64,000 nucleotides of DNA from NCBI RefSeq assembly GCF_007923295.1, contig NZ_VOIR01000012.1, positions 372,001 to 436,000 on the forward strand, given 5' to 3'. This document shows, one piece after another, positions 49,804 to 63,314 of this stretch; within the stretch, counting starts at the first letter, position 1; each line of letters opens with the position of its first letter. The notes beneath the pieces were generated by a model that was not told where the DNA came from, searched no databases, and saw only the letters and a list, made by a program, of their open reading frames with translations. A program made the translations under genes and the position numbers. Source of the stretch: Agrococcus sediminis. Its GTDB lineage: Bacteria > Actinomycetota > Actinomycetes > Actinomycetales > Microbacteriaceae.

Positions 49804-49904
49804 ATCCGCGGCGGGCTCCGATTCGCTCCTCGATCGGTCGCGCGGCGCAGCCATGACCGCGTGGGCGCGGCCGAGTGCCTGGTGGCACTGCGATACTCGG
49901 GGCG

Positions 49905-50624
49905 ATGAAGGCGCACGAGACCGTGATGGGCTGGGTGACGGCCGAGCTGCAGAGCGGCCGGCTGTCGATCGGCGATCACCTGCCCGGTGAACGCGCGCTC
50001 GCCGAGACGCTGGGCGTGTCGCGCGGATCGCTGCGGGAGGCCCTCCGCGTGCTCGAGGCGGTCGGCGCCATCCGCACCTCGACCGGCTCCGGCCCGCGCT
50101 CGGGCACGATCATCACCGCGTCACCGGGTCAGGCGCTCGCCCTCTCGCTCAACCTGCAGCTCGCGACCCGCCACGTCGAGCACGCCCACGTGTTCGAGGT
50201 GCGGCTGCTGCTCGAGGCCTGGAGCGCCGAGCACGCCGATCTCGCCAGCGGCGACTGGCCGACGGCCGAGCGCCTCCTCGACCGCATGGACGACCCCGGG
50301 CTCGGCGTGCCCGAGTTCCTCCAGCTCGACGCCGAGTTCCACGTCGCGCTGTCGCGCGCGGCGGGCAATCCGCTCATCAGCACGCTCATGGACGCGCTGC
50401 GCACCTCCATCGCCGACCACACGCTCGCGCGCGCGCAGGCGCTGCCCGACTGGCCGACGACGGCGACGCGGCTCCGCGGGGAGCATCGCGGCATCTATGA
50501 GCGGATGCGCGCCGACGACCGGGAGGGCGCTGCAGCGCTGCTTCGCGACCACATCCGCGGCTACTACGCCGAGACCTCGACGGAGCCGGACGGCGCTCGC
50601 ACCGCGACGGACGCGACGGGGTAG
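49905..50624 (+). CDS. FCD-type GntR regulator, LldR-like
   Basis: 239-aa regulator. N-terminal winged helix: LPGERALAETLGVSRGSLRE then ALRVLEAVGAIRTSTGSG. The C-terminal FCD domain has FEVRLLLEAWSAEHAD, EFHVALSRAAGNPL with metal His, and ADHTLARAQAL/RGEHRGIYERMRADDREGA halves with further His. FCD proteins bind carboxylates such as lactate. The MHS transporter and lldD follow, and the TGGTC-n-GACCA operators between fit the LldR/PdhR recognition pattern. ATG 49905 chosen; the frame is open to 49875. Confidence 0.88.
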   Translation: MKAHETVMGWVTAELQSGRLSIGDHLPGERALAETLGVSRGSLREALRVLEAVGAIRTSTGSGPRSGTIITASPGQALALSLNLQLATRHVEHAHVFEVRLLLEAWSAEHADLASGDWPTAERLLDRMDDPGLGVPEFLQLDAEFHVALSRAAGNPLISTLMDALRTSIADHTLARAQALPDWPTTATRLRGEHRGIYERMRADDREGAAALLRDHIRGYYAETSTEPDGARTATDATG

Positions 50625-50663
50625 CGACGCGCTCCGCCGGTGCGGACCGCGCGCCTTCGGCGC

Positions 50664-50721
50664 TTGACGGCGGGTGCCCGCTGCTCTATCGTCGCTGTGG
50701 TCTGACCACATGGTCCGACCA
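50664..50721 (+). promoter_or_regulatory. Promoter with two LldR/PdhR-type operators
   Basis: TTGACG (50664-50669) and TATCGT (50687-50692) are 17 bases apart. GTGGTC-T-GACCAC (50697-50709) and TGGTC-C-GACCA (50711-50721) follow, centred 13 bp apart at the expected start site. The TGGTCnGACCA pattern is that of FadR-subfamily regulators of lactate genes, so the protein encoded just upstream is the probable repressor. Confidence 0.75.
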
Positions 50722-50751
50722 CACTCGAACGCTTCTCGAAGGAGAGAAACC

Positions 50752-52095
50752 GTGGCCAGCACCTCTGCTCCCGCAGCTCAGCCGCCGCATCGGCTCAACT
50801 ACCGCGTCCTGTTCGGCAGCCTCTCCGGCAGCGTCATCGAGTGGTTCGACTTCCTCGTGTACGGCACGGTCGCCGCCCTCGTCTTCAACCGCATCTTCTT
50901 CCCCACCGACGACCCGTTCATCTCGACGCTGCTGGCCTACGCGTCGTTCTCGCTGACGTTCTTCTTCCGGCCCATCGGCGGCGTCGTCTTCGCGCACATC
51001 GGCGACCGGATCGGCCGCAAGAAGACGCTGTTCCTCACGCTGATGCTGATGGGCGGCGGCACCGTCGCGATCGGCCTCCTGCCCGACTACTCGGCGATCG
51101 GCATCTGGGCCCCGATCCTGCTCGTCCTCTTCCGCATCATGCAGGGCATCGGCATCGGCGGCGAGTGGGGCGGAGCCCTGCTGCTGGCCTACGAGTACGC
51201 ACCGAAGCACCGCCGAGGCCTCTACGGTGCCGTGCCGCAGATGGGCATCAGCCTCGGCCTGCTCCTCGCCTCGGCCGTCGTCGCGCTGCTGACGCTCATG
51301 CCCGAGGACCAGTTCCTGGCATGGGGCTGGCGGATCCCGTTCGTCGCGAGCGTCGTGCTGGTCTTCATCGGCCTGTGGATCCGCAACGGACTGGACGAGA
51401 CGCCCGAGTTCCAGCGGATCCGCGACACCGGCGCGCGCCTGCGCCTGCCCATCAAGGAGGTCGTCACGAAGCACTGGGGCGCCGTGCTCGTCTCGATCGG
51501 CGCGAAGGCCGCCGAGACCGGCCCCTTCTACATCTTCGGCACCTACGTGATCGCCTACGCCACGAACATCCTCGACGTGCGCCAGAACATCGTGCTGCTC
51601 GCCGTCGCGGCCGCGGCGCTCGTCGCCACGGTGTGGATGCCGTTCTTCGGCCATCTCTCCGACCGCGTCGGCCGCGCCGTGCTCTACCGGATCTCGGCGA
51701 CGGCGACGATCGTGCTCGTCGCGCCCTACTTCTGGGTCCTGAACACCGGTGAGACGTGGGCGGTCTTCGCCGCGACCATCGTCGCGTTTGGCCTGCTGTG
51801 GGGCAGCGTGAACGCGATCCTCGGCACGCTGATCGCCGAGAGCTTCAGCCCCGAGGTGCGCTACACCGGCGCGACGCTCGGCTACCAGGTGGGCGCTGCG
51901 ATCTTCGGCGGCACCGCGCCGCTGATCGCGGCGTGGCTGCTCGAGGCGAGCGGCGGCGAGTGGTGGCCGATCGCCGTCTACGTAGCCATCTGCGCCGGCC
52001 TGTCGGTCGTCGCCTCATTCTTCATCTCGCGCGTCGCGCACGTCGAGGCGACGCAGGAGGCCACGACGAGCGATCCCGTGCCCGACGTGCGCTGA
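50752..52095 (+). CDS. MHS-family MFS transporter (probable lactate/organic acid uptake)
   Basis: 447-aa MFS symporter of the metabolite:H+ symporter (MHS) family. [40 protein letters not shown] and [20 protein letters not shown] are the diagnostic MHS motifs, and [16 protein letters not shown] follows. These proteins take up organic acids such as citrate or alpha-ketoglutarate; lldD downstream points to lactate. GTG 50752 is preceded by AAGGAGA. It lies 50 bp before lldD and after the two operators. Confidence 0.9.
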
Positions 52096-52145
52096 GCGCC
52101 GCGCCAGCCGCGCCCATCCGTCCCGCATCCACACCGAGGAGCATC

Positions 52146-53402
52146 ATGAAGCGACAACTCCCCCGACTCGGCGAGCTCGCCGAGCTCATGCAGTTCAAGC
52201 GTCCCGACCTCGACGCCCGTCGTCGCCGGCTCGACGCGGCCCTCACGATCGACGACCTGCGGGCGATCGCCAAGCGGCGCACCCCGGCCGCCGCCTTCGA
52301 CTACACCGACGGCGCCGCCGACGGCGAGGTCTCGCTCACCCGCGCGCGGCAGGCGTTCGAGGACGTCGAGTTCCACCCCGACATCCTGCGGCCCGCCGCG
52401 AGCGTCGACACCTCGACGACCGTGCTCGGCGGCCCGAGCTCGATGCCCTTCGGCATCGCGCCCACCGGCTTCACGCGCCTCATGCAGTCCGAGGGCGAGA
52501 CCGCCGGCGCCGGTGCCGCGGCCGCCGCGGGCATCCCCTTCACGCTCTCGACGCTCGGCACCACGACGATCGAGGAGGTCAAGGCGGTCAACCCGCACGG
52601 CCGCAACTGGTTCCAGCTCTACGTCATGCGCGACCGCGAGGTCTCGTACGGGCTCGTCGAGCGGGCGGCCGCCGCGGGCTACGACACCCTCATGTTCACG
52701 GTCGACACGCCCATCGCCGGCGCGCGCCTGCGCGACAAGCGCAACGGCTTCTCGATCCCGCCGCAGCTGACGCTCAAGACCGTCGTCGACGCGATCCCCC
52801 GCCCGTGGTGGTGGTTCGACTTCCTCACGACGCCCAAGCTCGAGTTCGCGTCGCTGTCGACCACCGGCGGCACCGTGGGCGAGCTGATCAACAACGCCTT
52901 CGACCCGACCATCTCGTACGACGACCTCGACGTCATCCGCTCCATGTGGCCGGGGAAGCTCGTCGTGAAGGGCGTGCAGAACGTGCCGGATGCGGTGCGG
53001 CTCATCGAGGGCGGCGTCGACGGCATCGTGCTGTCGAACCACGGCGGGCGCCAGCTCGACCGCGCGCCCGTGCCGTTCCACCTGCTGCCGCAGGTCGTGC
53101 GCGAGGTCGGCCGCGACGCGACGGTCATGGTCGACACGGGCATCATGCACGGCGCCGACATCGTCGCCTCGGTGGCGCTCGGCGCCAAGTTCACGCTCAT
53201 CGGCCGCGCCTACCTCTACGGCCTGATGGCCGGCGGGCGCCAGGGCGTCGACCGCACGATCGCCATCCTGCGCTCCGAGATCGAGCGCACCATGGCGCTG
53301 CTGGGCGTCTCGTCGCTCGACGAGCTCGAGCCGCGCCACGTGACGCAGCTGCAGCGGCTCACGCCGATCGCGCGCGACGCGGCGGAGCGCATCGAGGGCT
53401 GA
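52146..53402 (+). CDS. lldD: L-lactate dehydrogenase (quinone/FMN), alpha-hydroxy-acid oxidase family
   Basis: 418-aa FMN enzyme. Motifs: [94 protein letters not shown], and [15 protein letters not shown] with the catalytic His and the Arg of the substrate site, then [14 protein letters not shown] for FMN phosphate. Oxidises L-lactate to pyruvate and passes electrons to quinone. GAGGA precedes the ATG. Last gene of the lactate operon; a GC stem over the end of the convergent VanZ-like gene could stop transcription. Confidence 0.92.
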
Positions 53403-53934: not shown

Positions 53935-53958
53935 GTGATCAAGTCGTTCGGAGGAGCG
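53935..53958 (+). pseudogene. higB: Remnant of higB toxin start codons
   Basis: GTGATCAAGTCGTTC encodes VIKSF, which equals the usual HigB N-terminus MIKSF, and then runs in frame straight into the ribosome site and ATG of higA. The rest of the toxin (about 85 codons) is missing, which implies an in-frame deletion. Inference from a very short match. Confidence 0.45.
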
Positions 53959-54252
53959 ATGAGCAAGCTGGAGCCAGTGCACCCCGGCGAGGTGCTCCAC
54001 GAGGAGTTCCTCGTGCCGCTGGGCGTCACGCAGCACCGGGTCGCGGTCGCGATCGGGGTGCCGCCGCGCCGGATCAACGAGATCGTCCATGGCAAGCGCC
54101 GCCTCACTGCCGACACGGCGCTGCGGCTCGCACGCTACTTCGGCACGTCGGCGCAGTTCTGGGTGAACCTGCAGTCGCGCTTCGACCTCGAGAGCGAGCG
54201 CGACCGCATCGGAGCGCGCCTGGAGGAGATCCGCCCGCTGCAGTCTGCCTGA
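53959..54252 (+). CDS. higA: HigA-type antitoxin (orphan)
   Basis: 97-aa XRE-family antitoxin. PVHPGEVLHEEFLVPLGVTQ and HRVAVAIGVPPRRINEIVHG form the helix-turn-helix, and KRRLTADTALRLARYFGTSA plus QFWVNLQSRFDLE the family's C-terminal part. Full length for HigA. GGAGGAG precedes ATG 53959. No HigB is encoded upstream or downstream apart from five codons, so it is an orphan, possibly a repressor or anti-addiction protein. Confidence 0.9.
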   Translation: MSKLEPVHPGEVLHEEFLVPLGVTQHRVAVAIGVPPRRINEIVHGKRRLTADTALRLARYFGTSAQFWVNLQSRFDLESERDRIGARLEEIRPLQSA

Positions 54253-54276: not shown

Positions 54277-55422
54277 TCAGCCCTGGAGCTCCATCCGGAC
54301 TCGTTCGAGCGCTGCCCGCCAGGGGATGCGCTCCTGCTCCAGCCGCATGTCGCCCTCGTCGCGCAGGCGGTCGAGCGCCGCTTGCTCGTGCGCCTCGAGC
54401 GTCGGGTAGCTGCCGCGCGCCGGCTTCGGTTCGGGCACCCACAGGTCGCGATGCGCGAGCAGCACCGCTTCGTCCATCAGGAGGCTGCGGACCCGCGGCA
54501 GCGCCGTGCGCAGCCGGTGCAGGATCGCGAAGCCATTCGAGTCGAGGTCGCCCCAGTACAGCACCTGAGTCGCCACGATCCAGGGCACCCGCGCGAGCTC
54601 GGCGACCGCGAACCCGGAACCGTGCACCGCAACCACGCCGTCCAACGGCGGCAGCGACAGCAGCGTCTCGAGGTTCTCGAGCACCAGCACCGTCGGGGCG
54701 CCGACCTCCAAACGGGCGAGCTCATCGATCGACGCCCCGAACGAGCGAGGCGCACCGGGCAGCATGTTGTCGTCGAGCAGCCGAGCGCGGAAGAGCTGCT
54801 CAGCGCCGACGACGCCGAGGCTCTCACGCCCGGTCGCGGCGAGCACGAGGGCCGACACGACCGCCCGGTGCGACGCGAACCACTTCGAGTCCACGCCGCG
54901 GATGGGCAGCTGGCGCGGACGCATCCCGTCGACCGGGTGCTCGCAGATCCAGCGTGCCGCGGCGAGCACGGAGGCAAACTCGTCCTCGGCGTAGTCGGCG
55001 AGCGCTGTCGCGTGGGTGCGTGCTGCCGTCGCGACCGCCTGCCCGCCTCCCAGCGCGGCGATCGCGATCGCCACTCGCGATCGCATCCGCGCCCACGCAT
55101 CCGCCGACGCTCGTCCCGCGAACGCGGCCAGGGCGTCCGCCCCCGAGATCGTCACGCGCACCGGCACGGTCTGCGCGCCGACGCGGCTCCACGCCCGCAC
55201 CTCCCACTCCACCTCGACGCCCGGCTCCTCTGCCGCCGTCGCCCAGGCGTCGCGCCACCCGAGCACCGCGCCCGGCAGCTCGAGCGCCTGCCGCTCGGTC
55301 GGCGCGTGGAGCGCGACCCGCACCGTTGCGACGGAGGCAGCCTCTGGATCGCACGCCCAGTCACGCGCACGCGTCGCGACCCGCGAAGCCACGCGCAACC
55401 GCGCCTCATCCACCCCGATCAC
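54277..55422 (-). CDS. jetD: Wadjet anti-plasmid protein JetD (topoisomerase-like nuclease)
   Basis: 381-aa nuclease subunit. RQLPIRGVDSKWFASHRAVV is the diagnostic JetD segment, and the C-terminal Toprim-like domain has LVLENLETLLSL with Glu and VLYWGDLDSNGFAILHRLR with the DxD metal residues. JetD cuts plasmid DNA held by the JetABC SMC complex (established for Wadjet). GTG 55422 overlaps the JetC stop. An N-terminal ~170-residue domain matches the DUF3322 part. Nothing is truncated. Confidence 0.93.
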   Translation of the reverse strand: MIGVDEARLRVASRVATRARDWACDPEAASVATVRVALHAPTERQALELPGAVLGWRDAWATAAEEPGVEVEWEVRAWSRVGAQTVPVRVTISGADALAAFAGRASADAWARMRSRVAIAIAALGGGQAVATAARTHATALADYAEDEFASVLAAARWICEHPVDGMRPRQLPIRGVDSKWFASHRAVVSALVLAATGRESLGVVGAEQLFRARLLDDNMLPGAPRSFGASIDELARLEVGAPTVLVLENLETLLSLPPLDGVVAVHGSGFAVAELARVPWIVATQVLYWGDLDSNGFAILHRLRTALPRVRSLLMDEAVLLAHRDLWVPEPKPARGSYPTLEAHEQAALDRLRDEGDMRLEQERIPWRAALERVRMELQG

Positions 55423-58400
55423 CGGACCTCCGAGAACCCGAGCTGGTCGACCGTCGACTGCCGCTGTGTCGGGTTCTGCACGACGGCCACCCCGCCGATG
55501 TACGGCTCGAGCGTCTGGAGGAGCTTGAGCGGCGTGGCGAGCACCATGTGGAAGCCGAACTCGACGAAGACATCCATCGCCATGCGCGTGTAGGCGCTGT
55601 CAGCCTTGTCGAACGCCTCGTCGAGGATGACGGTGCCGTAGCGGGGCATGTCGGCGCCGTCCTCCGTGAGCTGGTATCGGAGCGCCGCCGCGAGGCAGAA
55701 CACGACGAGCTTCTGCTGCTGTCCGCCGGAGAGCGATGCACCCGAGTCGTAGGTGGCGTGCACGAGGCCCGCGCTATCGACCACCTCTGCGAGGAAGGAC
55801 ACATGCAGGCGCGTGTCGAGGCACAGCTCGCGCCACTTGCGGTCGGCGGCATCGCTCGAGGCGAGCCGCGCCATCAGCTGCGCGAGCACCTCGAAGCGCC
55901 GCTCGGCGGAGGCCGCGTCCTCGTCATCCCAGCTGCCCTCGGCGATCTGCGCCAGCTCGGCAAGGAAGCGCTGCACCACGTCGCCGCGCGTCAGCTTCAC
56001 TCGGATGCGCAAGAACCGGTCGCGGTCGAACTGCGACCGCCCGAGCGACTCGTTGACGGGCGCAATGCGCTCGCGCACCTCCTTCGGCGCATCCAGCAGC
56101 TCCTTGCGCAGGAACCCGACGACGAGGCTCGACTTGTCACGCAGCAGTCGCCGGAAGCTCTGCTCCTGCGAGGGCAGATCGTTGGCCTCGATCGTCACGA
56201 GCAGCGCCCTGAACCCGGCGCGGTCGTCGATGCGGGCGACGAAGTCGGCGGATGCGGCGGCCCACCTGGCCTGGAAGCCGGTCGCCGCCGCGGCGAAGTC
56301 CTGCGCGGCCAGATCGCGCTCGCCGATCGCCCGCTCGCGCTCCCGGCTCAGCCGACCCTCGACCTCGCGGGAGGCGTCGGCGAGCTCGGCCAGAGCGATG
56401 CGACGCCGCATGTCGCGGAAGTGCGCAACGAGTTGCTCGACCGCCTCCGACTCGAGCTCGCCGCGCCCGTCGTCCGCGACGGCTCGCTCTGCCTCGGCGA
56501 TCAGACCGTCAAGCCGCTCGAGCTCGAGCCTCGCCGTCCGCTCCATGGCGACTGCCTCGTCGGCGGCGGCACGGGCGGCGTCTGAGACGGCCCGGGTCTC
56601 CTCGACGGCCGAGGCCGCCCGCTGCAGGTCGCTGCGCGCGCTCGTCAGGGCTGCGCGCTGCCGATGCAGCTGGGCGACGCGCGCACCGGCCGCCTCGGCG
56701 TCGTACTGCTCCCAGGATTCCGACAGCAGCTGCTTCAGCTGCTGCCGCCGACGGATGCTCAGCGAGACCTCCGCCTGCAGCAGCTCGACCTCGCGCGCGG
56801 CCGCTCGCACGTCGGCCTCCGCCTCCAGGTGCTGCGCCACCAGTGCCTCGTGGCGCGCCTCGCTCGATCCGAGCAGCCACCGCGTCGGGTCGTCGACGGC
56901 GAACCGGTCATCCTTCTCGTAGCGGGTGGCCGAGCGCTTCACCTGCCCGCGGATCGTCACCGCGCGAGCGAAGCGGTCGAGCTCATCGGCCGTCTCGACG
57001 CACGCGACGTCGAACTGCTCGGCGAGCCTGTGCGAGAGCCAGTCGTGGAAGCCGCCGGCGCTCACCGTGAGCTTGCGCACCAGGGAGACGTCGCTCGCGA
57101 GCGAGCGCGGCGAGCGAGACGTCGCCTCGACGAGCTCGTAGTCGAGCTTCAACCCGAGCGATGCGCCGTCGATCCAGCGCCGCGCGGCCGTGAGGTGCTC
57201 GGCCCGCACGAGCAGGGTGGTGGCGAGCGGGCGCAGCACCCGCTCGATCGCGCCTGTCCAACGGCGCTCCTCGGGCCTCACGTCGAGCAGCTCGCCGGCG
57301 AAGGGCACCGCTTGCTCCGGCACGCCCAAGTGGGCGGCCAGCCGCGATCGCACGTCGAGCCGACGCGCATCGATGTTGCTCCGGGAGCGCCGCAGCGCCT
57401 GCAGCTCGGCGTCGATGCGCTTGCGCCGGTCGGTCGACTGCGCGAGCCGCTGCACGGCGGGATGCTGCATGTCGAGCTTGGCCGCGGGCTGCCGCAGCTC
57501 GTCGTCGGCCATCGTGCGCAGCTCGACGAACTGCGCCTCGTCGCGCGGCGCCTGCTCGATGCCGACGTCGGCGAGCTGCCGCGTCAGCCGCTCGAGCTGC
57601 GCCCGCCGGTGCGCGACCTCGCGCTGCGCGTCCCCGATGCGTCCGTCGAGCTGCGCCAGGTCAGCTCCGCCCGCGCGGTCGAGCGCCTGCTGCGCCAGCC
57701 GATGATCGTCGGCGGCGGCCGCATCGCCCTCGCGCGCCGCGGCGAGCGCCGCGCGAGCCTGCTGGGCAGCGACGTCGGCGATCGTGCGCTCCTGGCGAGC
57801 GAGCCGCAGCCGCTCCCGCGCCTCGAATGGCCGCACGAGGTCGCGCAGCGCTTCGGCTGCGACGGCGCGGGCGGACGCGTCGTCGTACCGGTCACCGATG
57901 TCGCGCATGACGGCGAGCGCGTCGCGCTGCAGCCGCAGCTCGACGACGTGCTGGTGCGCCGCGTCCAGCTCGCCGAACTGCTGCACAGCATTGTCGGCGA
58001 TCGTGAACGTCTGCGGCCGGTCGAGCATGAACGTGCGGAACAGGTGGTCGAGGCCGCCCAGGTTCTTCGCCGACTGCGTGCGGTGCAGCAGCTGCAGCGC
58101 GTTGTCGCCGCTGATGCCCAGCAGGCTGCCGAGGCGCGCGTAGAACTTCGCGTGCTTGCCGCTCGTGGTGATCACCGCTCGCGGGAACGCGCGCTGGAGC
58201 CCACGCGTGTCGATGCCGTTGGCCTGGCTCGTCACGAAGCCGCGCAGCCGTTCGAGGTCGAGCTCCCCCTGCTCCAGCAGGTAGGCGTCGCGCAGATCGC
58301 TCCTGTCGGTCGACGTGCCCTTCAGGAACATGAGCCTCGCCAGGCTGAGCGACCCATCCGCGCCGTCCCCGTAGCGCAGCAGCACGCCGCTCACGACCGT

Positions 58401-58748
58401 GCCGGGCCGCAGGAACCGGCTGACGACGCGGTCCTGCTCCTCGTCGGCCGTCTTCGACCACGCGCCGCGCACGTAGCTGACGATGCTGCGGTCGCCGCGA
58501 GCGGCACCTGCTCCTTGCGCGGCAGCGTTGAACTGGAGCATGCCGTCGGGCGTGAGCACCGCCGCGATGCCGTCGAGCAGCGAGGACTTGCCGGAGCCCG
58601 AGCCGCCGGTGATCAGATGCCCCTTGCGCGCCACGTGCACCCGATGCAACCCGTCGAAGGTGCCCCAGTTGAGCAGCTGCACCTCGGCGAGTCGCCACTG
58701 CGCGCGCTGCTGCGGGGCCTCGAGGCCGGGGATCTCGAGCATCGTCAT
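55419..58748 (-). CDS. jetC: Wadjet SMC-like ATPase JetC (MukB-like)
   Basis: 1109-aa SMC ATPase. Walker A in residues 48-57 (GGSGSGKSSLLDGIAAVLTP), long coiled coils from ~270 to ~480 and ~630 to ~880, a hinge between them, signature in SYDSGASLSGGQQQ-type form (SLSGGQQQKLVVFCLAAALR), and Walker B VILDEAFDKADSAY. The core of the loop-extruding complex that recognises small circular DNA. ATGA overlap at 58745-58748 with JetB and at 55419-55422 with JetD shows strict stoichiometric translation. Arg/Leu-rich coiled coils as expected. Confidence 0.95.
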   Translation of the reverse strand: MTMLEIPGLEAPQQRAQWRLAEVQLLNWGTFDGLHRVHVARKGHLITGGSGSGKSSLLDGIAAVLTPDGMLQFNAAAQGAGAARGDRSIVSYVRGAWSKTADEEQDRVVSRFLRPGTVVSGVLLRYGDGADGSLSLARLMFLKGTSTDRSDLRDAYLLEQGELDLERLRGFVTSQANGIDTRGLQRAFPRAVITTSGKHAKFYARLGSLLGISGDNALQLLHRTQSAKNLGGLDHLFRTFMLDRPQTFTIADNAVQQFGELDAAHQHVVELRLQRDALAVMRDIGDRYDDASARAVAAEALRDLVRPFEARERLRLARQERTIADVAAQQARAALAAAREGDAAAADDHRLAQQALDRAGGADLAQLDGRIGDAQREVAHRRAQLERLTRQLADVGIEQAPRDEAQFVELRTMADDELRQPAAKLDMQHPAVQRLAQSTDRRKRIDAELQALRRSRSNIDARRLDVRSRLAAHLGVPEQAVPFAGELLDVRPEERRWTGAIERVLRPLATTLLVRAEHLTAARRWIDGASLGLKLDYELVEATSRSPRSLASDVSLVRKLTVSAGGFHDWLSHRLAEQFDVACVETADELDRFARAVTIRGQVKRSATRYEKDDRFAVDDPTRWLLGSSEARHEALVAQHLEAEADVRAAAREVELLQAEVSLSIRRRQQLKQLLSESWEQYDAEAAGARVAQLHRQRAALTSARSDLQRAASAVEETRAVSDAARAAADEAVAMERTARLELERLDGLIAEAERAVADDGRGELESEAVEQLVAHFRDMRRRIALAELADASREVEGRLSRERERAIGERDLAAQDFAAAATGFQARWAAASADFVARIDDRAGFRALLVTIEANDLPSQEQSFRRLLRDKSSLVVGFLRKELLDAPKEVRERIAPVNESLGRSQFDRDRFLRIRVKLTRGDVVQRFLAELAQIAEGSWDDEDAASAERRFEVLAQLMARLASSDAADRKWRELCLDTRLHVSFLAEVVDSAGLVHATYDSGASLSGGQQQKLVVFCLAAALRYQLTEDGADMPRYGTVILDEAFDKADSAYTRMAMDVFVEFGFHMVLATPLKLLQTLEPYIGGVAVVQNPTQRQSTVDQLGFSEVR

Positions 58749-59446
58749 CGCTCCGACTCCTCGTCGCCGGCCGAGACGGGCTCGCGGTCGTCGAGCGCCG
58801 CAGCCCCGCGCTCGATCGCACGCTCATACTCGAGGCGCAGCGCCTCCACGCGCTCGTCGTCGAAGATGAGCCGCAGTGCCGGCGAGATCTCGACCCTCTC
58901 GTCGCCGCCGGCGCGATGGATGAGTCCGAGCTTGTTCATGAGCTTGGTCCAGGAAGCGTTCATGCGGCGCTCGAAGTCGGCGGGGTCGCGCGCCACGCGG
59001 TAGGGCGCGAGCTGCTCGTACACGTCGGCCCGATCGATGAACACGCGTCGTTCCCCGCGCGCGGCCAGGAGGTGCTGACGGAGCACGAGCAGCATCAGCG
59101 TGTCCATGAAGGTCAGCGGTCGCGTGCGTACGGCGAGCGGAACCGCCCGATCGCCGGCGTCGACCGGGCGCACGAACGCGATCTCGTCGGCGCGGTCGAT
59201 CACGAGGTCGAGGAACAGGTCGTGCAGGCGCGAGCGGATCGCGTCGGTGTCGGCCAGCAGAGCGAGCCAGAGCCGGCCGCGGTTGGCGGCTGAGAGGTAG
59301 GGTCCCTGGACCAGCTCGAGGAGCGCACGCCTCGAGTCCTCGCGCAAGCTCCCGACGTCGCCCGGCCACAACGTCGTGAAGCCTGACGACGCATCCGTCT
59401 CCTGCTGGTCGCCCTCGATCGACCCTGGCGTGCGCGCGTCGGTCAT
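58745..59446 (-). CDS. jetB: Wadjet subunit JetB (MukE-like, DUF4194)
   Basis: 233-aa winged-helix kleisin-interacting protein. TLMLLVLRQHLLAARGERRV and FIDRADVYEQLAPYRVARD are typical DUF4194 segments, and MNASWTKLMNKLGLIHRAGG with VEISPALRLIFDDERVEAL ends the domain. It bridges JetA and JetC. Start and stop overlap its neighbours by 4 bases each. Confidence 0.92.
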   Translation of the reverse strand: MTDARTPGSIEGDQQETDASSGFTTLWPGDVGSLREDSRRALLELVQGPYLSAANRGRLWLALLADTDAIRSRLHDLFLDLVIDRADEIAFVRPVDAGDRAVPLAVRTRPLTFMDTLMLLVLRQHLLAARGERRVFIDRADVYEQLAPYRVARDPADFERRMNASWTKLMNKLGLIHRAGGDERVEISPALRLIFDDERVEALRLEYERAIERGAAALDDREPVSAGDEESER

Positions 59447-60897
59447 GTCGGAATCCTCTCGGTGAAGCTGTGGGTGCGCACGCGAGCGCTGCGGCGGGCG
59501 CCGTCGGCCCCCGACCAGGTCACGGACTCCGTCTCATCAGCCGAGACTCTGCCGTGCCGGGCCGCGAGCGTCATGAGTCCGACGACGCTCGCGACCCCCT
59601 GCGTCGCTGACCACTCGTCGAGCAGCGCGGCGACGGTGACGGCAGCCGTGCCGCGCAGCCGGTCGTTGACCACGCCGCTCAGCTCCGCGAAGTCGATCTC
59701 GGTGTCGCGGGCGAGCGCTCGCAGCTGCTCGAGGTCGGCCAGGCCCGGCTGGTGCGCGACGACGTGCACATCGACGGCGAACTCGGAAGGGTCGTGGAAG
59801 GCGAGCGCCCCAAGGCTGGAGAGTTCGACGGAGGTGAGCGGCAGTTCGATCCCGCTGGCGTGGAAGGGCTTGACGTGCTCGGCAGCGCGTTGCGCCGCGG
59901 CGAGCGCGGCGCGTATGGAGCGCTGCAGCGCGCGATCGCGCTGGAAGTCCTGCGACTGCACGTAGCGGCGCAGGCCGCGCGCGAACTCGGCGAGCACGCC
60001 GTGGATCTCGTGGCTGCCGAGCTTGAGCGTGTGCAGGAACGTGCGCAGGAACCGGCGCTCGGCCGTGGTCATCGCATGGCTGAGGTCACGATCGAGGAGG
60101 CTCGCGATGTCGTCCTCGAACGCCTCGCTGCGCTCGGTGTCGAGCACGAGCGCCGAGAACGCGCTGAACGTGAGCCCTTCGTCGGTCTGCTCGATGAGGT
60201 CGACGCCGCGGAAGATCTCCTCGACGACGCTGCGCTGCGACTCGTCGGAGTCGAGCAGGCTCGCCATGAGCTCGTGGTTCAGCTGATCGAAGCGGGCGCG
60301 CACGCGCTGGAAGTCGGAAGGCACGTCCTCGGCCAGCCTGAGGATCTCGGCGACGCGCTCCTTGGCCCGAGCCGCATCGAGCGGTTCGAAGCGGCCCTCG
60401 CCGATCGCCTGGATCTGCGCGTCGATGACGGCTCGCTCTCGCTCGAGCGCCTCCCGGCGGCGGGTGCCGTCCGGGTCGGTCTCGACAGCGAGCCGCTGCA
60501 CCTGATCGCGGATCGTCATCAGCCTCGACTCGGTCGCCGTCGCTCGCGGCTGCTCGATCTGCTCGAAGATGCGGATCGCGCGCAGCGCCTCCGAGGAGAG
60601 CTCTACCGTCTCTGCTCGCGCCGCCGGTGCGGGGCGTCGGACGAGCCAGCCCGCCGAGCGCCAGGCCGCGGCGTACGCGACGCCGGTCTGCGGCAGCGCG
60701 AAGTGCGACCGCAGCGCGTCGAGGTCGGCGTCGAGCAGGTCGACGAACTCCTCCGCCGGCATGCGGCGGGTCTGTCCGCCGAGGTGCCTCGAGAGGAGCG
60801 CGACGATGATCGGCGCGTGCTCCGCGCGCAGCAGCGCGAACGCGGCGTCGGTGTCGACCAGGCGCCGCAGGCGCAGTGCCGCCCCGAGCGCCGTCAC
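59443..60897 (-). CDS. jetA: Wadjet kleisin subunit JetA (DUF3375)
   Basis: 484-aa MukF/kleisin-like protein, first gene of the operon. The start VTALGAALRLRRLVDTDAAF and ALLRAEHAPIIVALLSRHLG is the standard DUF3375 beginning, with MPAEEFVDLLDADLDALRSH next. The central EPLDAARAKERVAEILRLAE and VRARFDQLNHELMASLLDSD segments and FRGVDLIEQTDEGLTFSAF are also family features. GTG 60897 is selected because GAGGCGAGG lies just upstream and the family begins here; the open frame continues to 60975. Divergent from the Fic gene by ~290 bp. Confidence 0.9.
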   Translation of the reverse strand: MTALGAALRLRRLVDTDAAFALLRAEHAPIIVALLSRHLGGQTRRMPAEEFVDLLDADLDALRSHFALPQTGVAYAAAWRSAGWLVRRPAPAARAETVELSSEALRAIRIFEQIEQPRATATESRLMTIRDQVQRLAVETDPDGTRRREALERERAVIDAQIQAIGEGRFEPLDAARAKERVAEILRLAEDVPSDFQRVRARFDQLNHELMASLLDSDESQRSVVEEIFRGVDLIEQTDEGLTFSAFSALVLDTERSEAFEDDIASLLDRDLSHAMTTAERRFLRTFLHTLKLGSHEIHGVLAEFARGLRRYVQSQDFQRDRALQRSIRAALAAAQRAAEHVKPFHASGIELPLTSVELSSLGALAFHDPSEFAVDVHVVAHQPGLADLEQLRALARDTEIDFAELSGVVNDRLRGTAAVTVAALLDEWSATQGVASVVGLMTLAARHGRVSADETESVTWSGADGARRSARVRTHSFTERIPT

Positions 60898-61123
60898 AAG
60901 CCTCGCCTCATGGCTCCATCCTGGCTGAGGCGGGTGACACGGTCGCTCGCTCCACGCCGACCCGCGCATCGACACCCGTCGTAGCGATCAGATCTATCGT
61001 TTGAGTTCGAGGGTACGACTCCGAACGGGAGGACGGCGCACCCCGCGAGGAGCCGCCCGACCGCGTCGCGTAGCGGCCGGGCCGCTGTCCCCAGCACCTG
61101 TCGACGTCGCGAACATATCCGGC

Positions 61124-61161
61124 GAACGTGTTAACTTCTTGGCTGTTTGGGTAACACATTC
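61124..61161. promoter_or_regulatory. Inverted repeat in the jetA/fic intergenic region
   Basis: GAACGTGTTA (61124-61133) and TAACACATTC (61152-61161) are inverted copies with one mismatch, 18 bases apart, in the AT-richest part of the 289-bp divergent region. On the minus strand TATGTT (61117-61112) might be a -10 for jetA. A shared regulator of the defence genes is possible. No other feature was seen in 60898-61185. Confidence 0.45.
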
Positions 61162-61185
61162 GACCGAAGTGTTGAGGAAGCCGAC

Positions 61186-62250
61186 ATGTCATCGTGGACC
61201 CCGCACGAACCGTACAACGACCTGCCGCCACGTCCGCGCCCTGTCCAGCCTCCCAGCACGCTGCTGCTCGAGGCGGCAAGCGCACTGGGGCGCGCGGATG
61301 AGGCAGCTCGCTCCATTCCGAATCCGGGCGTGCTCGCGGCCGTCGTTCCGATCTTGGAGGCGCAGGCCTCTTCGGCCATCGAGAACATCGTCACCACCAG
61401 CGACGAGCTCCTGCGCGAGGCCGCGGGAGTCGGAACTCCGACTCCCGCAACCACCGAAGCCCTGCGGGCACGAAGCGCACTGATCGTAGGCGTGGACGCA
61501 CTCCGTGCTCGGCCCGTCTCCCCCGCGATGGCGACCCTCGTCGCCGATGAGCTCATGGGTCATTCGATGCAGTTCCGGCGGGGAGGTGGCGTCTACATCG
61601 GTCGTCCAGACGGAACGCGCGTCTACACGCCCCCAGAGGGCCACGAGCGGATCGCCTCACTGCTCGATGAGTGGGCGACCTACGTGCACGATGCATCGGT
61701 CGACCCGCTCACTCGGATGGCGCTCAGCCACTACCAGTTCGAGGCGATCCACCCGTTCCACGACGGCAACGGGCGAACGGGCCGCATCCTGAACCAACTT
61801 CTGCTCATCGAGAGCGGCCTGATCGAGCAGCCCGTGCTCTATCTGTCCGGCATGATCAACCACCGGCGGCGCGACTACTACGAGCGCCTGCTCGCCGTCA
61901 CCGCAGAGGACGCATGGGAGCCGTGGCTCGAATTCATGCTGCTCGCGGTTCGCGATGGCTCCCACTGGTCGCTCGAGAGAGCCGTTCGCGTTCGCGCTGC
62001 CTTCACGACGGCCGCCGAAGAGATCGATCGTGTCCTGCCGAACGGGGTGAGCACGAAATTCGTCGACGTCCTCTTCCGCAACGCCTACGTCACCATCCGT
62101 GACGTCGTGGAGGCTTGCGGCGTCACGCGCCAGACCGCTTCGAACTGGCTCCATCGGCTGAGCGATAGCGGCCTGATGACGGAACTGCCATCAGGCCGCA
62201 CGAAGGCCTTCGTGAATCGGCCGTTCCTCGCCGCACTCGTCGAGGACTGA
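61186..62250 (+). CDS. Fic family protein with N-terminal inhibitory motif
   Basis: 354-aa Fic protein. The active loop is HPFHDGNGRTGR, intact and predicted AMP-transferring. The N-terminal SSAIENIVTTSDELL carries the (S/T)xxxE(G/N) autoinhibitory helix of class II Fic proteins. A C-terminal winged helix (RNAYVTIRDVVEACGVTRQTA split by Ser/Asn) is a DNA-binding-like domain of the Fic/DUF4172-type group. TGAGGAAG precedes ATG 61186. It lies beside Wadjet and may be part of the same defence cluster; its target is unknown. Less GC-rich than the flanks by eye. Confidence 0.9.
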   Translation: MSSWTPHEPYNDLPPRPRPVQPPSTLLLEAASALGRADEAARSIPNPGVLAAVVPILEAQASSAIENIVTTSDELLREAAGVGTPTPATTEALRARSALIVGVDALRARPVSPAMATLVADELMGHSMQFRRGGGVYIGRPDGTRVYTPPEGHERIASLLDEWATYVHDASVDPLTRMALSHYQFEAIHPFHDGNGRTGRILNQLLLIESGLIEQPVLYLSGMINHRRRDYYERLLAVTAEDAWEPWLEFMLLAVRDGSHWSLERAVRVRAAFTTAAEEIDRVLPNGVSTKFVDVLFRNAYVTIRDVVEACGVTRQTASNWLHRLSDSGLMTELPSGRTKAFVNRPFLAALVED

Positions 62251-62291
62251 TCGTGCCCACAGGAACTCGGACCGATCAGGCCTGAGCCGGG

Positions 62292-63188
62292 TCACACCGT
62301 CGCCCTCGACAGGTGCGGGTGCTCTGCGACGAGCGACCGGATCCCGTCGGTGATGACGCGCACCCGCAGGAGCTCGGTGAGGTCGCGCGGCACGACGAGC
62401 CAGTAGGTGCGGCGGATGCGCAGCTCCTCCGGGAGCACGCCCACGAGCTCCGGGTCGGCGCCGCCGATGTAGGTCGGCAGGAGCGCCACGCCGAGGCCGG
62501 CGCGCGCGGCGCTGTGCTGGCCGGTGATGTTGTTGGTCTGCAGCCGCGCGTGGGCGCGCGGCAGCAGCTCGTCGAGGATGCGCAGGGGCGCCACGTCGAG
62601 CAGCGCCTCGACGTACCAGATGAGGTCGTGGGCGCGCCGCAGCTCTTCGACCGTGACCGGGGTGCCGTGGCGCTCGAGGTAGGCGCGCGAGGCGTAGCAG
62701 CGCAGCTCGTAGTCGGCCAGGTGCTGCACCGCCGCGGCGCGCGGCGAGGGCCGCTCGAGCGTGACGGCGACGTCGAAGTCGCGCGCGGTGATGAGGTCGT
62801 GGCTCGTCGCGGTGATCACCTCGACCGAGAGGCCCGGATGCGCGTCGAGCAGCGGCCGCAGGCCCGGCACGAGCACGTTGGCGCCGAAGCCGTCGGGCGC
62901 GAGCAGCCGCGCGGTGCCGCTCAGGTCCCCGGCGCGCGAGACGACCGCCTCGAGCGCCCGCGCCATGCTCGACTCGACCGCCTCCGCGTGCGGCAGCACG
63001 AGCCGCGCGGGCTCGGTGATGCGCCAGCCCTGCGGCGTGCGGTCGAACATCCGCACGCCGAGCTCCTGCTCGAGCCGGCTGATGCGCCGCGACACCGTCG
63101 TCTCGTCGACCTGCAGGCGGGCGGCGGCGTCGCGCAGCCGGCCCGTGCGGGCCACCTCGAGCAGGTAGCGCAGGTTCTCGGCGTCCAT
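62292..63188 (-). CDS. LysR family transcriptional regulator
   Basis: 298-aa LysR regulator. Helix-turn-helix at residues 5-60: LRYLLEVARTGRLRDAAARL, then VDETTVSRRISRLEQELGVR and MFDRTPQGWRITEPARL. The C-terminal PBP2 ligand domain has two lobes, ending TYWLVVPRDLTELLRVRV. Divergent from an iron-containing alcohol dehydrogenase gene by ~125 bp, so it probably regulates it. The ATG at 63188 is taken from the family N-terminus. Confidence 0.9.
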   Translation of the reverse strand: MDAENLRYLLEVARTGRLRDAAARLQVDETTVSRRISRLEQELGVRMFDRTPQGWRITEPARLVLPHAEAVESSMARALEAVVSRAGDLSGTARLLAPDGFGANVLVPGLRPLLDAHPGLSVEVITATSHDLITARDFDVAVTLERPSPRAAAVQHLADYELRCYASRAYLERHGTPVTVEELRRAHDLIWYVEALLDVAPLRILDELLPRAHARLQTNNITGQHSAARAGLGVALLPTYIGGADPELVGVLPEELRIRRTYWLVVPRDLTELLRVRVITDGIRSLVAEHPHLSRATV

Positions 63189-63232
63189 GCATCCATTCTG
63201 CACTTCTGCAGTCGAGTCTGCGCGTTTGGGCG

Positions 63233-63261
63233 TTGACGCCTGCATCCGCGCATCCCAGGCT
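63233..63261 (+). promoter_or_regulatory. Candidate promoter of the alcohol dehydrogenase gene
   Basis: TTGACG (63233-63238) with CAGGCT (63256-63261) at 17-base spacing, 54 bp before the GTG. LysR sites (T-n11-A) are likely in the CTGCACTTCTGCAG region at 63198-63211, which is nearly palindromic. Confidence 0.35.
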
Positions 63262-63314
63262 GGGAGCATCCATCCCCGTCCTGCGGGGCCGAGAACCACG
63301 AAGGCGTGCACCCG

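What the first reader, a model, noticed from the sequence alone, without database searches (positions are those of the whole stretch)
54277..62250. Complete Wadjet JetABCD operon beside a Fic protein and an orphan HigA
All four Jet genes are intact and joined by 4-base overlaps. The Fic gene with an intact HPFHDGNGRTGR loop is divergent over a region with a GAAYGTGTTA inverted repeat, and an orphan HigA lies at the other end. The block may be a defence island where Fic and Wadjet share regulation. Association of Fic with Wadjet is not something I know as standard.
Basis: partly seen in the sequence, partly recalled or inferred. Interest (0 to 1): 0.7.

Follow-up and report, generated by a model that had tools for sequence, protein, structure and literature searches.

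The report
Wadjet beside a self-regulated Fic gene
A complete anti-plasmid Wadjet operon lies next to a Fic toxin-like gene without being tied to it, and the DNA repeat between them looks like the Fic protein's own on/off switch rather than one shared with Wadjet.

Summary
JetABCD is a complete type I Wadjet operon with 4-base overlaps; the Fic gene is an intact SoFic-like AMPylator with a C-terminal winged helix; the inverted repeat is real; a HigA without HigB lies beyond jetD.

Shared regulation is not supported. In a sister species (86% identical Fic) the Fic gene keeps its lysR neighbour and its repeat but lies about 4.7 kb from jetA. Two sisters with Wadjet but no Fic at the site lack the repeat. 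One of 80 fetched Fic relatives has Wadjet nearby.

The repeat is the interesting part. SoFic-like genes from many phyla carry an upstream dyad (RTGT...ACAY, usually 15 bp between 7-bp half-sites). The last three half-site letters follow the protein's recognition helix in 80 of 80 classifiable relatives (20 of 101 had no dyad, 1 was gapped): S/T-R-P with AAA, S/T-R-Q with TAA/TAG, other residues with CG. I conclude that the repeat is SoFic's own operator; binding is untested. A 2023 paper states that SoFic DNA binding had not been shown.

HigA is a leftover: six codons of higB remain in front of it. Fic near Wadjet is slightly commoner than chance, as loose defence clustering would give.

The parts
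59443..60897 (-). jetA (DUF3375), 484 aa from the GTG at 60895-60897; the ORF extends to 60975
   Evidence: Pfam DUF3375 E 6e-124; PADLOC JetA1 E 5e-175; start inferred from alignment with three sister species
58745..59446 (-). jetB (DUF4194), ATGA overlap with jetA
55419..58748 (-). jetC (SMC-like ATPase), ATGA overlap with jetB; Walker A, signature and Walker B present
54277..55422 (-). jetD (DUF3322 + JetD_C), GTGA overlap with jetC
60916..60940 (-). Block conserved just upstream of jetA (GTCACCSGCMTCMGCCAGRATGG), possibly jetA's own promoter region
   Evidence: present in the window, G223, G402 and G384, whether or not fic is adjacent; further upstream the window shows no clear similarity to the others, while G223 and G402 are alike; promoter role inferred
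61124..61161 (.). Inverted repeat GAACGTGTTA-N18-TAACACATTC: predicted SoFic operator
61186..62250 (+). fic: SoFic-like Fic protein, 354 aa, HPFHDGNGRTGR and SSAIEN motifs
   Evidence: Fic_N, Fic and SoFic-like_C over cut-off; PADLOC SoFic E 6e-93; PDB SoFic chains E about 1e-73 to 1e-76; NCBIfam SoFic equivalog E 1e-101 but 340 bits against a cut-off of 550
62011..62223 (+). C-terminal winged helix of Fic (residues 276-346) with recognition helix VTRQTASNWL (313-322)
   Evidence: SoFic-like_C match; residue 314 has the highest mutual information with half-site class of the columns scored; 'recognition helix' from alignment and position, no structure examined
62292..63188 (-). lysR-type regulator gene, the stable neighbour of fic (41 bp between the stop codons here)
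   Evidence: Pfam HTH_1 and LysR_substrate; 85-92% identical in 7 other genomes of the genus; same tail-to-tail junction in G223
53935..53952 (+). Relic of higB: six codons (VIKSFG), six bases before the higA ATG
   Evidence: compared with the start of higB in relatives; no HigB match elsewhere in the window, best E 0.73
53959..54252 (+). higA antitoxin gene without higB
   Evidence: NCBIfam antidote_HigA 109 bits, cut-off 47.7; 55-71% identical to HigA in the relatives examined

Best explanation
The block is a standalone type I Wadjet operon beside an independently placed and independently regulated SoFic-like gene, next to a decayed higBA pair. Shown by sequence: the inverted repeat goes with the Fic gene, not with Wadjet, and its half-site letters go with the Fic protein's recognition helix across phyla. 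Inferred: a SoFic dimer binds this dyad through its two winged helices and represses its own promoter, keeping a potentially toxic AMPylator low until it is needed. jetABCD is read from its own promoter close to jetA and cleaves plasmid-like circular DNA, as recalled for other Wadjet systems.
For: Fic identity. Site history: a lysR orthologue (85-92% identical) lies in 8 of 24 genus genomes counting the window. In the stretches fetched beside it, fic is next to lysR in 2 of 8 (window, G223), jetABCD is present in 4 of 8 (window, G223, G402, G384), and jetA-fic adjacency in 1 of 8. G223 has lysR-fic-FMNdh-MFS-GntR-jetABCD (GntR, MFS and FMN_dh) and a symmetrical version of the repeat at the same distance from fic, -58. 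The repeat core is absent from the G402 and G384 stretches. Family dyad: strict form in 42 of 78 upstream regions (76 of the 80 loci, plus window and G223), 0 of 144 control windows, mean 0.42 and maximum 3 in 200 shuffles; 48 of 52 dyads have exactly 15 bp between half-sites. Helix-operator rule: 80 of 80 classifiable, ungapped loci out of 101, against at most 54 in 5000 label shuffles; 59 of 59 when both arms must be of one class. Helix class and operator class each need 5 changes on the catalytic-domain tree of those 80 loci. Precedent: CccR, a Fic-HTH protein, represses its own promoter through an inverted repeat (PMC9755527, passages).
Against: No binding or expression data. The window's own site departs from the family form (16 instead of 15 bp; right arm TAC instead of TAA) and fails the strict pattern. 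20 of 101 loci have no classifiable dyad, and 41 of 101 have none under the strict form. In the three classified Xanthomonas loci only one arm fits the TAA class. Sequences are related, so 80 loci are far fewer independent events. Some columns outside the winged helix also carry high mutual information (38, 133, 43, 137 and 192 are in the top 20), which shows the share of common descent. Fic near jetABCD is commoner than chance.
Confidence: 0.85

Rival explanations
1. Fic and Wadjet form one functional unit with shared regulation: the repeat controls both divergent promoters and Fic acts as a backup suicide effector when Wadjet fails.
For: Divergent arrangement in the window. Divergent adjacency also in G236 (43% identical Fic) and, with a different Fic subfamily, in G233. 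5 of 42 complete jetABCD loci have a Fic_N-type gene in the stretch, 0.58 expected.
Against: In G223 fic and jetA are about 4.7 kb apart with a GntR-MFS-FMN-dehydrogenase module between them. G402 and G384 have Wadjet without Fic at the site and without the repeat core. 79 of 80 fetched SoFic relatives show no jetA or jetB in their stretch (58 of the 80 stretches are 12 kb or longer). The repeat is 24 bp from fic and 226 bp from jetA, and jetA has its own conserved upstream block.
Confidence: 0.07
2. The repeat is the operator of another regulator, for instance the neighbouring LysR protein, which controls fic.
For: lysR is the stable neighbour of fic. LysR proteins bind dyads (recalled).
Against: Dyads of the same form occur upstream of SoFic-like genes in many phyla and their letters follow the Fic helix. 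The exact core occurs at one place in the genome. In the stretches fetched beside lysR orthologues without fic (G402, G384, G265, G332, G119, G405) the exact core was not found.
Confidence: 0.05
3. The clustering of Fic with Wadjet is itself selected because the two defences work better together, although each is regulated on its own.
For: Three further lineages (G236, G233, G331) have Fic near jetABCD; Poisson P about 0.02 for 3 or more with 0.58 expected, post hoc.
Against: The excess is modest. Other families recur as often in the same neighbourhoods (clusters in 11, 7 and 6 of 42 loci; the 11-locus one may be antisense, the other two look ABC- and SDR-like by eye). General defence-island clustering explains it equally well.
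Confidence: 0.1

Closest known systems
Type I Wadjet (JetABCD)
   Same: All four proteins, order jetA-B-C-D, overlapping genes, DUF3375/DUF4194/SMC/JetD domains
   Different: Nothing unusual found; anti-plasmid activity not tested
SoFic / Sofic Fic proteins (Shewanella SoFic, PDB 3eqx and 3zcn; EcSofic, PMC12249575)
   Same: Fic_N + Fic + SoFic-like C-terminal domain along the whole protein, HPFxDGNGR loop, class II inhibitory motif
   Different: Below the NCBIfam SoFic equivalog cut-off (340 against 550 bits). EcSofic has a 47-residue antitoxin gene AS1 downstream (abstract and passages); here 41 bp separate fic from lysR. A family-wide operator is proposed here; a 2023 paper says SoFic DNA binding had not been shown (PMC10628234, passages)
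CccR of Yersinia pseudotuberculosis (PMC9755527)
   Same: Fic protein with C-terminal HTH that represses its own promoter through an inverted repeat; dimer needed (passages)
   Different: Distant (29% identity to SO_4266 at 45% coverage, per the paper); 10-bp repeats 26 bp apart, against 7-bp half-sites 15-16 bp apart here; T6SS-secreted
higBA toxin-antitoxin
   Same: HigA antitoxin and a higB-like start
   Different: higB reduced to six codons

Membership tests
Type I Wadjet | jetA, jetB, jetC, jetD all present, in one operon | tested here: met
Type I Wadjet | SMC ATPase motifs intact in JetC | tested here: met
   Walker A GGSGSGKS, LSGG, VILDE
Type I Wadjet | Cleaves circular plasmid DNA and reduces plasmid maintenance | not testable with these tools
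   needs a transformation assay
SoFic-like class II Fic | Fic_N, Fic and SoFic-like_C domains over curated Pfam cut-offs | tested here: met
   63.7, 60.8 and 50.3 bits against 26.7, 24 and 27
SoFic-like class II Fic | HPFx(D/E)GN(G/K)R loop and (S/T)xxxE(G/N) inhibitory motif | tested here: met
   HPFHDGNGRTGR at 189, SSAIEN at 62
SoFic in NCBI's narrow sense (equivalog NF046030) | score over the equivalog cut-off | tested here: not met
   340 bits against 550, though aligned along 4-354; hence called SoFic-like here
SoFic-like class II Fic | AMPylation and abortive infection | not testable with these tools
   none here
Sofic-AS1 toxin-antitoxin pair | small antitoxin gene directly downstream of Sofic | tested here: not met
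   41 bp between fic and the convergent lysR gene; similarly short in G223
Autorepressing Fic-HTH regulator (as CccR) | inverted repeat in own promoter, matched to the protein's DNA-binding domain | tested here: met
   by sequence covariation only
Autorepressing Fic-HTH regulator (as CccR) | protein binds the repeat and represses transcription | not testable with these tools
   needs gel shift and reporter fusion
higBA toxin-antitoxin module | higB toxin gene intact upstream of higA | tested here: not met
   six codons only; no HigB match in the window

The most novel reading that the evidence does not exclude
SoFic-like anti-phage proteins from many phyla are self-repressors with a readable DNA code: residues 314 and 316 (window numbering) of the recognition helix set the half-site, which has switched repeatedly between AAA, TAA and CG forms in step with the helix. 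In many proteobacterial genes two or more dyads lie upstream and the last can reach the start codon, so the operator acts as the toxin's restraint; events that pull SoFic off its operator, such as phage DNA replication or host DNA breakdown, would give a burst of toxin. The first sentence is well supported by sequence; the trigger is speculation.
Probability: 0.3. Interest if true: 0.7.

Novelty: new variant of a known kind. Interest (0 to 1): 0.5.

Why it matters
The Wadjet-Fic pairing itself is ordinary. PDB 3eqx lists SoFic as a 'Fic domain containing transcriptional regulator', and a 2023 paper says that its DNA binding had not been demonstrated (passage). The predicted operator makes that question testable with one gel shift, and suggests how a toxin without a known antitoxin partner is kept quiet.

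Tried and rejected
Shared Wadjet-Fic regulation: rejected for the reasons above. LysR as owner of the repeat: judged unlikely. AS1-type antitoxin: no room downstream. A first, too narrow pattern (GTTA-N10..26-TAAC) gave 5 of 77 upstream regions, against 2.4 on average and 8 at most in 500 shuffles, and 0 of 73 control windows, so it was not significant; reading those regions by eye led to the dyad. The strict dyad pattern misses the window's own site. Four of the 80 loci (L208, L232, L236, L237) were left out of the upstream test by my choice (matches near a contig end or lacking the start); they were in the alignment without upstream data. In one search classes were given by the majority of arms with a known triplet over all 15/16-bp dyads, so one fitting arm was enough; one search is the stricter check. 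Helix regular expressions picked wrong residues in several rows and were replaced by the alignment. The place list was capped, so co-location was read from the jet stretches, not from that list. Neighbour clustering is crude: ORFs are stop to stop, some clusters are antisense artefacts, names were read by eye. G344 (Fic about 9 kb from jetA) was not counted, because I had moved its stretch to include the Fic. G373 has another Fic-loop ORF about 2 kb from jetA, not counted. jetD was recognised in part of the loci only (42 of 110 complete), perhaps because the profile came from this subtype. One tblastn query (the alcohol dehydrogenase) was in a wrong frame and so said nothing. A reading frame 62191-63273 scanned was also the wrong one; the LysR frame was confirmed. 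Literature statements rest on searches of open-access PMC papers only. Seen: PMC12249575 abstract and passages; PMC9755527, PMC10628234, PMC8649781 and PMC11706625 passages; all others as listings. One search lists 12 papers holding both 'Wadjet' and 'SoFic'; beyond PMC11706625 I did not open them, so a described co-occurrence there is not excluded.

Full report
What is there. The four jet genes are complete, on the minus strand, in the order A-B-C-D, and match PADLOC type I Wadjet models. Overlaps are ATGA, ATGA and GTGA. Alignment with three species of the genus puts the jetA start at the GTG 60895-60897, with a conserved block at 60916-60940 just upstream that may be its own promoter region. 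The Fic gene (61186-62250) has Fic_N, Fic and SoFic-like_C domains, matches PADLOC SoFic and solved SoFic structures, and keeps the catalytic and inhibitory motifs. It scores below NCBI's SoFic equivalog cut-off (340 against 550 bits), so I call it SoFic-like.

Is Fic a Wadjet partner? JetA matched in 102 of 398 family genomes, 101 over the cut-off, and Fic_N in 172 of 398, 139 over the cut-off. In 110 jetA stretches (109 fetched plus a window piece), 42 have all four jet genes, and 5 of those 42 have a Fic_N-type gene in the stretch: window, G223, G236, G233, G331. About 0.58 were expected. The window is where the question arose and G223 is its close relative, so 3 are independent. In G236 and G233 the Fic gene is divergent and adjacent to jetA as in the window, but the Fic proteins are only 43% and 28% identical to it, the latter over 209 residues. 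From the other side, among 80 SoFic relatives kept from GTDB genomes (stretches of 3.7 to 21 kb, 58 of 80 at least 12 kb), jetA or jetB was found in 1, the same Cryobacterium. This fits loose defence clustering, not a fixed pair.

Site history in the genus. A lysR orthologue (85-92% identity) marks the site in 8 of 24 genomes counting the window. In G402 the order is lysR, FMN-dehydrogenase, MFS, GntR, jetABCD, with no fic. In G223 it is lysR, fic, FMN-dehydrogenase, MFS, GntR, jetABCD, with fic and jetA about 4.7 kb apart. In G384 jetABCD lies about 7 kb from lysR, with FMN-dehydrogenase on its other side and no fic in the stretch. In G405 (contig end), G265, G332 and G119 the fetched stretches show neither fic nor jet beside lysR; G265 has its jetA about 52 kb away. 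The tail-to-tail fic-lysR junction (41 bp in the window, similarly short in G223) is shared, so lysR, not jetA, is the stable neighbour of fic.

Whose repeat is it? The core GTGTTA-N14..22-TAACAC occurs once in the window and at one place in the genome. Among the 289 loci then held it appears in 7: three overlapping loci at the window's fic, three at the G223 fic, and L171, a Nocardiopsis SoFic-like gene. It is absent from the G402 and G384 stretches. SoFic upstream DNA shows a general dyad RTGTHRR-N15-YYDACAY: 42 of 78 upstream regions, 0 of 144 control windows, mean 0.42 and maximum 3 in 200 mononucleotide shuffles, with 48 of 52 dyads at exactly 15 bp. A scored, looser form reaches 5 or more in 50 of 78, against a mean of 0.33 in 60 shuffles. 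In most Microbacteriaceae SoFic-like genes the dyad starts at -56; in the window and G223 it starts at -58 with spacing 16.

The code. I aligned the proteins and classified half-sites by their last three letters: 109 candidates, 107 with 150 bp upstream, 101 after removing those at least 95% identical, 81 with a class, 1 of these gapped in the helix. [S/T]314-R-P316 goes with AAA in 22 of 22, [S/T]314-R-Q316 with TAA/TAG in 8 of 8, and other residues at 314 (K, Q, E, G, R) with CG in 50 of 50: 80 of 80, against at most 54 in 5000 label shuffles. I noticed the rule in the table; 23 of the 101 loci were added afterwards, 18 of them classifiable, all consistent. Requiring both arms to be of one class leaves 59 of 59, with 41 loci unclassified and 1 gapped. 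Column 314 has the highest mutual information with operator class (1.35 bits), and columns 276-346 average 0.50 against 0.27 before them; but columns 38, 43, 133, 137 and 192, outside the winged helix, are also in the top 20, a sign of shared descent. On a tree of the catalytic domain alone, helix class and operator class each need 5 changes, 4 and 4 on the strict set. Three classified Xanthomonas loci with VTRQTAAR lie next to two loci with AKRETAAR, of which the one classified has CG sites; two Corynebacterium loci with K/Q-R-Q have CG sites although their nearest other neighbours are actinobacterial AAA loci. In the Xanthomonas loci only one arm is TAA, the other ACT; the window's right arm is TAC. 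These are weak points.

How it likely works. Shown: domain content, motifs, conservation of the dyad, helix-operator covariation. Inferred: a SoFic dimer sits on the dyad over its promoter and represses itself, as CccR does with a different repeat (PMC9755527, passages). EcSofic is toxic and causes abortive infection (PMC12249575, abstract and passages); its partner AS1 has no counterpart here. PMC10628234 (passages) states that SoFic DNA binding had not been demonstrated. In the listings I saw no paper on a SoFic operator; subscription journals and preprints were not searchable.

The orphan HigA. In relatives higB begins GTGATCAGRTCGTTCG (VIRSF). The window has GTGATCAAGTCGTTCGGA (VIKSFG), followed after six bases by the higA ATG. 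Of 17 HigA homologues examined in fetched loci, 13 have a full-length or nearly full-length HigB match directly upstream, 2 a partial one, 1 none (G332), and 1 is cut by the contig end; further homologues listed were not examined. The window has none (best E 0.73). So higB was most likely lost by a deletion inside the gene, and higA is a leftover beside jetD, not part of Wadjet.

Noticed in passing
53935-53958 (+): The GTG-started frame of higA begins with six codons that look like the start of higB, so higA may now be translated from the old higB start as well as from its own ATG.
   Followed up: partly
49875-53402 (+): A GntR-MFS-FMN-dehydrogenase block lies on the far side of jetD here and in G384, but between lysR and jetA in G402 and G223: a local rearrangement around the Wadjet operon.
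   Followed up: partly
L193, L226, L247, L207 and other proteobacterial or acidobacterial SoFic loci, upstream of fic: Two or three dyads in a row, the last reaching the start codon by eye, as if the operator also covers translation start or a very short leader.
   Followed up: no
Microbacteriaceae SoFic loci, for example L033: By eye a -10-like hexamer lies very close to the ATG in several, suggesting leaderless mRNA with the right half-site at the -35 region.
   Followed up: no
L062-L170 (jetA loci): Many jetA-B-C loci in the family gave no JetD match with the profile used (42 of 110 complete); either divergent JetD or jetABC without the nuclease.
   Followed up: no
L287 (G332): A second HigA in the genus without a HigB match directly upstream.
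   Followed up: no
L068, L074, L086, L092, L122: A recurring neighbour of complete jetABCD loci (5 of 42), which looks like a DUF222/HNH protein (name from memory, not searched).
   Followed up: no
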